DNA of 64,000 nt from Pseudomonadota bacterium (lineage in GTDB: Bacteria > Pseudomonadota > Gammaproteobacteria > Burkholderiales > UBA9220): positions 1 to 64,000 of the forward strand of contig JAJZVC010000011.1 of the NCBI GenBank assembly GCA_021845865.1, written 5' to 3'. Position numbers and translations under genes: made by a program. A model generated the notes under the pieces. It was given only the letters and a program-made list of their open reading frames with translations. It was not told where the DNA came from and did no database searches. Shown piece after piece: positions 47,463 through 50,105 of the stretch. Numbering within the stretch: the first letter of the stretch is position 1; each line of letters begins with the position of its first letter.

Positions 47463-48281
47463 TTACAAGCCCAGGCGCTGGCCCAGGGTGGAGATCAGCC
47501 CCGCCTGGTTGAGGGTGTAGAAGTGCAGCCCCGGTGCACCGCCCCGCAGCAGCTTGTCGCACAGGTCGGTGACCACGTCCAGGCCGAAGGCTTGGAGGGC
47601 GGGCAGGTCGTTGGCCATGCCTTCCATGCGCTTGCGCATCCAGCGGGGAATCTCCGCCCCGCAGGCGTCGGAAAAGCGTGCCAGCTGGGTGAAGTTGGAG
47701 ATGGGCATGATGCCCGGCACGATGGGGATGGACACTCCCCGCGCGGCGCACTCGTCGACGAAGCGGAAGTAGGCGTCGGCGTTGTAGAAGTACTGGGTGA
47801 TGGCGGCGTCCGCCCCGGCCTTCGCCTTGGCGGCGAAGTTGTCCAGGTCCGCCACGGCGGAGGGGGCCTCGGGGTGGAACTCGGGATAGGCGGCCACCTC
47901 GATGTGGAACCAGTCGCCGTACTCGGCGCGGATGAAGGCCACCAGGTCGGCGGCGTAGCGGAAATCCCCCAGCTCCACCATGCCCGACGGGATATCGCCG
48001 CGCAGGGCGACGATGCGCTTGATGCCGTTGGCCTTGTACTCGTCCAGCAGGCTCTTGATGCTGTCGTGGGTGGCGGCGATGCAGGACAGGTGGGGGGCGG
48101 CCTGGTGGCCCTCCTTCTGTATCTCCAGCACCGTCTCCAGGGTGCGGTCCCGGGTGGAGCCGCCGGCGCCGAAGGTGACCGAGAAGAACTCCGGTTTCAT
48201 CTGCGCCAGCTGTTGGCGGGTGGCCCGCAGCTTGTCGATGCCCTCCTGGGTCTTGGGGGGGAAGAATTCGAAACTGAGCAT
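47463..48281 (-). CDS. metF: methylenetetrahydrofolate reductase
   Basis: MLSFEFFPPKTQEG; the ORF extends upstream to 48317 (MTPSRLTPHASR-) through the 7-bp repeat array. Confidence 0.95.
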   Translation of the reverse strand: MLSFEFFPPKTQEGIDKLRATRQQLAQMKPEFFSVTFGAGGSTRDRTLETVLEIQKEGHQAAPHLSCIAATHDSIKSLLDEYKANGIKRIVALRGDIPSGMVELGDFRYAADLVAFIRAEYGDWFHIEVAAYPEFHPEAPSAVADLDNFAAKAKAGADAAITQYFYNADAYFRFVDECAARGVSIPIVPGIMPISNFTQLARFSDACGAEIPRWMRKRMEGMANDLPALQAFGLDVVTDLCDKLLRGGAPGLHFYTLNQAGLISTLGQRLGL

Positions 48282-48282
48282 A

Positions 48283-48310
48283 CGTGAGGCGTGAGGCGTG
48301 AGGCGTGAGG
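48283..48310 (+). repeat. 7-bp tandem array, four CGTGAGG units, metF side
   Basis: CGTGAGGCGTGAGGCGTGAGGCGTGAGG directly read. Confidence 0.97.
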
Positions 48311-48313
48311 GGG

Positions 48314-48676
48314 TCATTTCTCTACTCGCTTCCTCTGGTGGTTGATGAGGCCGCTAATCAGGGCAAATAGTCGTTCCAATTGTTCGGTGGGAACTTGGCT
48401 TGCTTCCAGATAGCCGATTTCTCGCGCCACGATCAACTGGGTCTCCAGCTCGCTCAAGGACCCTCGGGCGACGCCGAGAAAGTGGAGTAACTCCTTGTCC
48501 GTTAAACGCGCGCTGCCCTCGGCGATATTCGAGGGGACGGAGATTGCGCTACGGCGAATCTGGCTCGCCAAGCCATAAGTTTCGTGCGGGGGAAAGGAAG
48601 CGGTGAGGGCATAAACGTCCTTGACCAAGCCAATGGCAAGCTGCCAAGCGTCAAGGTCGTGGTGTTTCCGCCTCAC
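48314..48676 (-). CDS. four-helix-bundle protein of S23/IVP (23S rRNA intervening sequence protein) family
   Basis: HHDLDAWQLAIGLVKDVYALTASFPPHETYGLASQIRRSAISVPSNIAEGSAR...FLGVARGSLSELETQL. Confidence 0.93.
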   Translation of the reverse strand: MRRKHHDLDAWQLAIGLVKDVYALTASFPPHETYGLASQIRRSAISVPSNIAEGSARLTDKELLHFLGVARGSLSELETQLIVAREIGYLEASQVPTEQLERLFALISGLINHQRKRVEK

Positions 48677-48698
48677 CCCTCACCCCTTTCCCCTCACG
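48671..48698 (-). repeat. 7-bp tandem array, ahcY side, inverted relative to 48283-48310
   Basis: Top strand CCTCACC CCTCACC CCTTTCC CCTCACG; bottom strand CGTGAGG GGAAAGG GGTGAGG GGTGAGG. Confidence 0.95.
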
Positions 48699-48701
48699 GC
48701 C

Positions 48702-50105
48702 TTAATACCGGTAGTGGTTGGGCTTGTAGGGGCCGTCCTTGGGCACGCCGATGTACTTGGCCTGCGTGTCGGAGAGCTCCGTCAGGTGGACGCCGATCTT
48801 CTTCAGGTGCAGGCGGGCCACCTTTTCGTCCAGATGCTTGGGCAGGGTGTACACGCCCACCGGATACTTGTCGGCATGGTTGAACAGCTCGATCTGGGCG
48901 ATGGTCTGGTTGCTGAAGGACGCGGACATCACGAAGGAGGGGTGGCCAGTGGCGCAGCCCAGGTTCACCAGGCGGCCCTTGGCGAGAACGATGATCTTTT
49001 TGCCGTCGGGGAAGATCACGTGGTCCACCTGGGGCTTGATCTCCTCCCACTGGTATTTTTCCACCGAGGCGATGTCGATTTCGGAGTCGAAGTGGCCGAT
49101 GTTGCACACGATGGCCTCGTTCTTCATCTTCGCCATGTGGTCGTGGTTGATCACGTGCACGTTGCCGGTGGCGGTGACGAAGATGTCGCCGATGGCGGCC
49201 ACCTCGTCCATGGTCACCACGCGGTAGCCTTCCATGGCCGCCTGCAGGGCGCAGATGGGGTCGATTTCGGTCACCATCACGGTGGCGCCCATGCCGCGGA
49301 AGGCCTGGGCGCAGCCCTTGCCCACGTCGCCGTAGCCCAGCACGACGCAGATCTTGCCCGCCACCATCACGTCGGTGGCGCGCTTGATGCCGTCCAGCAG
49401 GGATTCGCGGCAGCCGTAGAGGTTGTCGAACTTGGACTTGGTCACCGAGTCGTTGACGTTGATGGCCGGGAATTTCAGGCGGCCTTCCTCGGCCATCTGG
49501 TAGAGGCGGTGAACGCCGGTGGTGGTTTCCTCGGTCACGCCCTTGATGTGCTTGATGCGCTCGGAGTACCAGCCGGGAGAGGTTTCCAGGCGTTTCTTGA
49601 TGGCCGCGAACAGCACCCGTTCTTCCTCGCAGGTGGGGTTGGCGATGCAGGACGGGTCGCTTTCCGCGCGGGTGCCCAGGTGCAGCAGCAGGGTGGCGTC
49701 GCCGCCGTCGTCCAGGATCATGTTGGCGGGCTCGCCGGGCCACTCGAAGATGCGGTGGGTGTAATCCCAGTACTCTTCCAGGGACTCGCCCTTGTAGGCG
49801 AAGACCGGGATGCCGTCGGCGGCGATGGCGGCGGCGGCGTGGTCCTGGGTCGAGTAGATGTTGCAGGAAGCCCAGCGTACCTGGGCGCCCAGGGCGGTGA
49901 GGGTTTCAATCAGCACCGCGGTCTGGATGGTCATGTGCAGGGAGCCGGCGATGCGCGCGCCCTTGAGGGGCTGGGAAGCGGCGAATTCCTCGCGGATGGC
50001 CATCAGGCCGGGCATTTCCACCTCGGCGATGGCGATTTCCTTGCGGCCCCAAGAGGCCAGGGACATGTCGGCGACTTTGTAGTCGGTGAATTTAGCGTCA
50101 GCCAC
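48702..50105 (-). CDS. ahcY: adenosylhomocysteinase
   Basis: [54 protein letters not shown] start. Confidence 0.97.

What the first reader, a model, noticed from the sequence alone, without database searches (positions are those of the whole stretch)
48283..48698. S23/IVP four-helix-bundle gene bounded by inverted arrays of a 7-bp (C/G)GTGAGG repeat
Seen directly: the metF side has four perfect CGTGAGG units (48283-48310). The ahcY side (48671-48698), read on the opposite strand, is CGTGAGG GGAAAGG GGTGAGG GGTGAGG. The S23-family ORF (48314-48676) fills the space between them. The array starts 3 nt after the ahcY stop (48702-48704 on the bottom strand) and ends 1 nt before the metF ATG. Established: S23/IVP proteins are known from intervening sequences in 23S rRNA and the fold is related to DGR accessory proteins (Avd). 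No rRNA or reverse transcriptase is present here. Inference: a compact repeat-bounded cassette that inserts at gene junctions.
Basis: partly seen in the sequence, partly recalled or inferred. Interest (0 to 1): 0.83.

Follow-up and report, generated by a model that had tools for sequence, protein, structure and literature searches.

The report
S23 genes inside paired heptamer arrays
A small gene of unknown function (S23/IVP family) sits here between two mirror-image runs of a 7-base repeat, squeezed between two neighbouring metabolic genes. The same arrangement, with a different 7- or 8-base repeat in each lineage, recurs around this gene family across many bacterial phyla and points to an unrecognised kind of hairpin element that lives in the gaps of operons.

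Summary
In detail: four perfect CGTGAGG units (48283-48310), an inverted 4-unit array (48671-48698), and an S23/IVP gene (PF05635, E=1e-33) between them, wedged between ahcY and metF. It is not a local curiosity. In 100 S23 loci from 13 phyla, plus cyanobacterial plasmids, the flanks show strong periodicity at lag 7 and its multiple 14 only; a minority of loci carry 8-nt units. The two flanks are reverse complements of each other within a locus, and the unit differs between lineages (GTGAGGN, GGGAATC, GTGAGTN, TTAGTCC, CGTGACG). In the host genomes tested, the same unit is also dispersed elsewhere; in this genome S23-less hairpins lie at operon junctions such as rbcL|rbcS, rpoB|rpoC and leuD|leuB. 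S23 copies sit at similar junctions (accB|accC, sdhA|sdhB, guaB|guaA, dnaK|dnaJ, metH|metH, ahcY|metF), mostly co-directional. Often an ATGA overlap fuses the array, as an N-terminal extension, to the downstream protein. S23 is under purifying selection (dN/dS 0.03-0.21). Presence/absence at one junction varies within the genus and order. Most likely: an IVS-like hairpin cassette living in operon mRNA, with S23 acting in trans on hairpins. Placement and architecture are shown; mobility and mechanism are inferred.

The parts
48671..48698 (-). 5' arm (sense of S23): heptamer array CGTGAGG GGAAAGG GGTGAGG GGTGAGG; it carries the S23 GTG start codon and starts 3 nt after the ahcY stop
   Evidence: direct reading; TRF period 7
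48314..48676 (-). S23/IVP four-helix-bundle gene, 120 aa
   Evidence: PF05635 E=1.1e-33; TIGR02436; AF2 pLDDT 96.8; Foldseek 2GSC E=1e-8, TM 0.92
48314..48317 (-). ATGA: metF start codon overlapping the S23 stop codon (translational coupling)
   Evidence: the same overlap recurs at about 20 other S23 loci, control 3 of 74
48283..48310 (+). 3' arm: (CGTGAGG)x4 on the + strand, i.e. CCTCACG x4 in the sense of S23; inverted relative to the 5' arm and in frame with metF
   Evidence: direct reading; TRF 4.0 copies, 100%
47463..48317 (-). metF (downstream host gene); residues 2-12 (TPSRLTPHASR) are encoded by the array
   Evidence: ORF; 88% identical MetF in G001; N-terminus
48702..50105 (-). ahcY (upstream host gene)
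   Evidence: ORF; AhcY found next to metF in relatives

Best explanation
This is one member of a widespread composite element: an S23/IVP gene enclosed by inverted arrays of a lineage-specific 7-nt (sometimes 8-nt) unit, placed between two co-directional genes of an operon. SHOWN: the architecture; the intra-operon placement; the shared unit between the S23 cassette and S23-less hairpins dispersed at other operon junctions; purifying selection on S23; presence/absence variation at the same junction. INFERRED MECHANISM: (a) In the polycistronic mRNA the arms pair, as in the 23S rRNA intervening sequences of this family, so the S23 cistron forms the loop of a long stem. The stem can be cut out (RNase III-like) or simply insulate it, which is harmless between cistrons. 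(b) The 5' arm supplies stop, Shine-Dalgarno-like and GTG start signals, while the 3' arm is mostly free of stops and is read through from an ATGA overlap, so the downstream host gene stays translated. (c) The S23 protein, an Avd-like four-helix bundle, acts in trans on array hairpins and promotes their spread or upkeep. One or a few S23 genes would serve many non-coding hairpins, the division of labour seen in REP/RAYT.
For: Period 7 (and 14) only: 0.376/0.399 identity at lag 7 against 0.262 in controls. Arms complementary within a locus: median score 17.5 against 8.0 between loci, own partner top-3 in 56 of 98; also higher than between loci at the same junction (19.4 vs 13.4, p=4e-10), so the arms co-vary. 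Of 63 representatives below 60% identity, 49 have an array. Unit of the S23 cassette = unit dispersed in the host: GGGAATC x3 84 times in Xanthomonas and 0 in 11 others; GTGAGG mostly in GTGAGG-type hosts. Solo hairpins at rbcL|rbcS, rpoB|rpoC, leuD|leuB, norC|norB, mrp|dcd, ilvC|psd, narK|narG. S23 at operon junctions, co-directional on both sides in at least 64 of 86. ATGA overlap with an array-encoded N-terminus. dN/dS 0.03-0.21. ahcY|metF empty in relatives, decayed S23 in G026; guaB|guaA with S23 in G001 but S23-less hairpins in G017 and G027. MFE fold of the window element closes on the two arms. IVS excision by RNase III is published (PMC4990558).
Against: No transposition, target duplication or RNA cleavage was observed. 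RNAduplex energies between the arms hardly beat other stretches of the same loci (-46 vs -42 kcal/mol), so RNA pairing rests on sequence complementarity, not on energy. S23-less hairpins also occur in genomes without S23 (G024, G017). Enrichment of 7-nt runs in S23+ relatives is about 2-fold and borderline (p=0.058). S23 clades keep one junction over a whole family (accB|accC, metH), which looks more like long residence than frequent movement. The link between S23 subtype and unit at different junctions is weak (rho 0.12, p about 0.02). Coxiella S23p is apparently not made in vivo (PMC4990558 abstract).
Confidence: 0.5

Rival explanations
1. Hairpin first: heptamer hairpins arise and spread by themselves (slippage, recombination or an unknown host process) in the gaps after stop codons, and the S23 gene is a passenger that settles in such hairpins because they are tolerated insertion sites. 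S23 then does something unrelated.
For: S23-less hairpins in S23-less genomes; the array unit follows the host genome; array length differs by one unit between two S23 copies of Nostoc PCC 7120, consistent with slippage; other intergenic gaps of S23 genomes also hold 7-nt runs (13%).
Against: It does not explain why S23 specifically is found in these hairpins across 13 phyla with ATGA coupling and strong purifying selection. GTGAGG hairpins appear in both relatives with a GTGAGG-type S23 and only 1 of 58 others (p=0.0017).
Confidence: 0.3
2. Regulatory RNA device: the paired arrays are host-adapted intercistronic processing or stabilising structures, and S23 is their RNA-binding regulator, inherited vertically with the operon, with no selfish mobility.
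For: Same junction kept in family-level clades; purifying selection; placement in operons of complexes and pathways; a positional bias of GGGAATC repeats close to the 5' neighbouring ORF is published for Xanthomonas (PMC4692102).
Against: Patchy presence (11 of 60 relatives over the Pfam cut-off), very different junctions in sister species, decayed and empty sites, unlike units at the same junction. Repeat sites of prominent length are not shared between Xcc and Xac (PMC4692102).
Confidence: 0.15
3. The hairpins are ordinary REP/MITE-type elements moved by a Y1 (RAYT) or another transposase, or by a reverse transcriptase supplied in trans.
For: A Y1_Tnp gene exists in this genome; the REP architecture is similar (palindromes, many copies, extragenic).
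Against: No association of S23 with Y1_Tnp (9/11 vs 28/49, p=0.18) or with RVT_1 (5/11 vs 18/49, p=0.73); no RVT_1 in this genome. No transposase was recognised among the immediate neighbours of the chromosomal S23 loci.
Confidence: 0.04
4. Chance: low-complexity, GC-rich sequence next to an unrelated orphan gene.
For: Heptamer tandem repeats are over-represented among bacterial SSRs (cited in PMC4692102).
Against: Lag specificity, within-locus inversion, cross-phylum recurrence.
Confidence: 0.01

Closest known systems
IVS elements of 23S rRNA (Coxiella, Leptospira, Campylobacter) with an S23p ORF
   Same: Same protein family; ORF in the loop of a stem made by terminal inverted repeats; sits in a transcript in which an extra cut is tolerated; patchy distribution
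   Different: Here in protein operons between cistrons, not in rRNA; arms are tandem arrays of a lineage-specific 7/8-mer; the same arms exist genome-wide without the ORF; strong purifying selection on S23
REP/RAYT (REPIN) systems
   Same: Few coding copies bounded by inverted repeats plus many dispersed non-coding palindromes of the same sequence in extragenic space
   Different: Protein is a four-helix bundle with no recognised nuclease, not a Y1 transposase; arms are tandem arrays; mobilisation by S23 is not demonstrated
GGGAATC arrays of Xanthomonas, GGGGATT/STRR of Nostoc/Calothrix, TAACTGA of Beggiatoaceae, GGGACCG of Geobacter (PMC4692102, PMC4679880, PMC2700814)
   Same: Heptamer tandem arrays, intergenic, often paired in inverted orientation
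   Different: No link to S23 genes is reported in the two papers searched for it (PMC4692102, PMC4679880: no occurrence of S23) or in the passages read of the third; here the arrays are shown to bracket S23 genes and to share the unit
Avd of diversity-generating retroelements
   Same: Same fold (Foldseek 8UBE/8UB7, prob 0.99, TM about 0.6); PF05635/Avd homology noted in PMC10053308
   Different: No reverse transcriptase in this genome; template and variable repeats were not searched for

Membership tests
S23/IVP protein family (PF05635, TIGR02436) | profile match over the curated cut-off | tested here: met
   116 bits vs cut-off 33.8; 110 vs 24
S23/IVP protein family (PF05635, TIGR02436) | four-helix-bundle fold as in solved members | tested here: met
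   AF2 model pLDDT 96.8; 2GSC TM 0.92, 2RLD TM 0.63-0.79
23S rRNA IVS element | located in a helix of a 23S rRNA gene | tested here: not met
   between ahcY and metF
23S rRNA IVS element | terminal inverted repeats enclosing the S23 ORF | tested here: met
23S rRNA IVS element | excision from the RNA by RNase III | not testable with these tools
   needs an RNA assay
REP/RAYT system | Y1 (HUH) transposase gene bounded by the repeats | tested here: not met
   the bounded gene is S23; no S23-Y1_Tnp association
REP/RAYT system | many dispersed non-coding palindromes with the same ends as the coding copy | tested here: met
Diversity-generating retroelement (Avd) | reverse transcriptase in the genome | tested here: not met
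   no RVT_1 in G000, 91% complete; template and variable repeats were not searched for
Insertion sequence / MITE | transposase in cis and target-site duplication | tested here: inconclusive
   no transposase within the cassette; target duplication not tested
Heptamer tandem-array repeats of bacteria | three or more tandem 7-nt units, intergenic, often paired inverted | tested here: met

The most novel reading that the evidence does not exclude
S23/IVP proteins are the trans-acting factors of a bacteria-wide class of mobile RNA-hairpin elements. Each lineage has its own 7-8-nt array unit; non-coding copies and S23-coding copies insert next to stop codons inside operon mRNAs and are tolerated because the hairpin is processed out or insulated while the downstream gene is re-coupled through ATGA. 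The rRNA IVS is just one landing site of this class. GxxExxY (PDDEXK_3) genes, bounded in the same way by 8-10-nt arrays, would be a second family of it.
Probability: 0.3. Interest if true: 0.93.

Novelty: new variant of a known kind. Interest (0 to 1): 0.84.

Why it matters
S23/IVP is a widespread protein family without an established function (a structure has been in the PDB since 2006), and heptamer arrays are among the commonest unexplained longer tandem repeats of bacteria. The two appear to be parts of one system placed at operon junctions. That gives both a testable role, places the long-puzzling rRNA IVS in a wider class, links them by fold to DGR Avd, and would explain 'LTPHASRLTPH'-like N-terminal extensions on metabolic enzymes.

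Tried and rejected
RNAduplex energy between flanks was not discriminative against other stretches of the same loci; the complementarity score was used instead. A frame-based explanation (7 and 8 are not multiples of 3, so stops occur in all frames) holds partly: the 5' 45 nt have stops in 2.16 frames on average, the 3' 45 nt in 1.07, control 1.50. But GGGAATC arrays have no stops and GxxExxY arrays include 9-nt units, so it is not the general reason for the unit length. Reverse transcriptase or RAYT as the mover: no association. Enrichment of 7-nt runs in S23+ relatives by sampling: about 2-fold but borderline. Phages: no S23 match. Plasmids: nearly only cyanobacterial. One search failed on a region one base too long; one search failed on report format. 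Paper searches found no work linking S23 genes with heptamer arrays; the library lacks most subscription papers and preprints, so prior description cannot be excluded.

Full report
OBSERVATION. The coordinates are right. Four perfect CGTGAGG units lie at 48283-48310. The reverse-oriented CGTGAGG GGAAAGG GGTGAGG GGTGAGG lies at 48671-48698, with the 120-aa S23/IVP ORF (PF05635, E=1e-33) between. Two details were added. The S23 start codon is the GTG of the innermost GTGAGG unit. The metF frame opens at an ATG overlapping the S23 stop (ATGA), so the 3' array is probably translated as MetF residues MTPSRLTPHASR.

THIS GENOME. The assembly (2.69 Mb, 91% complete) has one S23 gene. It also has further places with tandem SGTGAGG units, most of them with an inverted partner array close by and no S23. 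Reading the flanking ORFs (assignments by my knowledge of these proteins) puts the S23-less ones at rbcL|rbcS, narK|narG, mrp|dcd, ilvC|psd, norC|norB, leuD|leuB and rpoB|rpoC, starting a few nt after the upstream stop codon. A two-unit copy lies inside aroA. In relative G045 (which carries a GTGAGG-type S23 before ruvC) hairpins of the same unit lie at ntrB|ntrC, hscB|hscA, ftsH|folP and before purH; in G024 (no S23) at pyrG|kdsA.

OTHER S23 GENES. 80 relatives from GTDB genomes and 19 from the same order were aligned at their ORF ends. The 100-nt flanks show excess self-identity at lag 7 and 14 and at no other lag (0.376/0.399 vs 0.262); individual loci carry period-8 arrays. Runs at lag 7 occur in 33% of upstream and 55% of downstream flanks, against 2% of random positions and 13% of other intergenic gaps in the same loci. 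Upstream and downstream flanks are reverse complements of each other within a locus far more than between loci, also among loci at the same junction, so the two arms change together. Units are lineage-specific: GTGAGGN in many Pseudomonadota, GGGAATC/GGGATTC in Xanthomonadales, GTGAGTN in Vreelandella, TTAGTCC in Flavobacterium, CGTGACG in Bipolaricaulota, GTCGTTTA (8 nt) in Prevotella. On Nostoc and Calothrix plasmids they are GGGTGTA, GGGAGTA and GTCGGAG. The G-rich strand is upstream in 86 of 99. Of 63 representatives below 60% identity, 49 have an array. Loci span 13 phyla plus Cyanobacteriota.

UNIT AND HOST. Across 12 genomes, GGGAATCx3 occurs 84 times in the Xanthomonas and never in the other 11. 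GTGAGGx3 occurs in this genome, Zobellella (82), two Thiobacillus, Halomonas and Vreelandella, and not in Xanthomonas, Flavobacterium, Bipolaricaulota, Acidobacteria or Prevotella. GTGAGTx3 is concentrated in Vreelandella and Halomonas. So in the genomes tested the S23 cassette mostly carries a unit that is dispersed in its host.

JUNCTIONS. S23 lies between functional partners (names by eye): accB|accC, sdhA|sdhB, guaB|guaA, dnaK|dnaJ, gmd|fcl, dTDP-rhamnose genes, the two halves of metH in Flavobacteriaceae, metH|metF, gmk|nadD, trpE|trpG, E1|E2, yebC|ruvC, ahcY|metF. Automatic calling gives both neighbours co-directional in 64 of 86; most of the exceptions I checked are antisense ORFs in GC-rich DNA whose true genes I recognised. 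In 22 loci a start codon overlaps or touches the S23 stop and opens the downstream gene, usually ATGA with array-encoded residues such as TPHASRLTPH; control 3 of 74.

PRESENCE/ABSENCE. At ahcY|metF most relatives are empty (about 20-190 nt). The congener G001 has other genes there. G026 keeps a decayed C-terminal half of S23 ending in CCCCCTCACC. G001 has S23 at guaB|guaA with a CTAGGGG unit, while G017 and G027 have S23-less inverted 7-nt hairpins of other units at that junction. S23 clades mostly keep one junction within a family, but sister S23s of different families share an unusual 8-nt unit at different junctions (L028 dnaK|dnaJ, L033 before recN), as do L016 and L030. The overall association of unit and S23 similarity across junctions is weak (rho 0.12, about p=0.02). 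Nostoc PCC 7120 has two S23 copies with the same protein accession on two plasmids, differing by one array unit.

PROTEIN. dN/dS is 0.03-0.21 between species. The AF2 model (pLDDT 96.8) matches 2GSC (Xcc0516) and 2RLD, and more weakly the DGR ribonucleoprotein chains 8UBE_D and 8UB7_E (prob 0.99), which I take to be Avd. Median pI is 8.8.

MECHANISM. Best supported: an IVS-like hairpin cassette in operon mRNA. IVS excision by RNase III is published for rRNA (PMC4990558); here it is inference from architecture. The trans-acting role of S23 on hairpins is an inference by analogy to REP/RAYT and Avd. Support is partial: GTGAGG hairpins occur in both relatives with a GTGAGG-type S23 and in 1 of 58 others (p=0.0017), and a sampled enrichment of 7-nt runs is borderline. 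Neither reverse transcriptase nor Y1 transposase tracks S23.

NOVELTY. Heptamer arrays have been described as G-quadruplex or regulatory repeats (PMC4692102, PMC4679880, PMC2700814) and S23 as an rRNA-IVS or DGR-like protein (PMC4990558, PMC10053308). No paper found links them. The held library is partial, so prior description remains possible.

LIMITS. The 80 GTDB loci are the nearest relatives of one S23, not a random sample of the family; the order-level set was chosen by HMM and agrees. Gene names of neighbours are by eye. P-values of local tests ignore phylogeny except where representatives or within-junction controls are given.

Noticed in passing
L308, L310, L311, L312, L313, L316, L317, L320, L321, L324, L325 (relatives; genes at locus centre): GxxExxY / PDDEXK_3 (PF13366) genes are likewise bounded by inverted tandem arrays, but of 8-, 9- or 10-nt units (e.g. 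CGCGGAGGA, CGCCAAGGA, CACGAATGAA). In the 60 relatives they co-occur with S23 (5 of 6 strong-match genomes vs 6 of 54, p=5e-4). Possibly a second family of the same kind of element.
   Followed up: partly
L145 around 1296-1456 (G026): ahcY|metF junction with a decayed S23: only the C-terminal half remains, fused to a GTGAG start, ending in CCCCCTCACC.
   Followed up: yes
L119 (G001) between ahcY and metF: The congener has two other small genes at this junction that look like a HepT/MntA (HEPN / nucleotidyltransferase) pair.
   Followed up: no
L004 around 1501 (G000:C48:23266-23279): Two CGTGAGG units lie inside the aroA coding frame, apparently read as RLTPHA before IDTYDDHRMA: a possible in-frame array insertion in an essential enzyme.
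   Followed up: no
L121 ahcY|metF junction (G017): Inverted 9-nt array (CGCGGAGGA) without any gene at the same junction, i.e. the GxxExxY-type unit.
   Followed up: partly
L335 (Nostoc edaphicum plasmid pNe_5): S23 bounded by GGGAGTA arrays lies between ribonucleotide reductase beta and alpha genes, on the opposite strand to both.
   Followed up: no
L332 and L333 (Nostoc PCC 7120 plasmids gamma and alpha): S23 copies with the same protein accession on two plasmids whose downstream arrays differ by one 7-nt unit.
   Followed up: partly
L040 3769-4300: Tandem pair of S23 ORFs, the first truncated by a stop or frameshift, with GTGAGG arrays at both outer ends.
   Followed up: no
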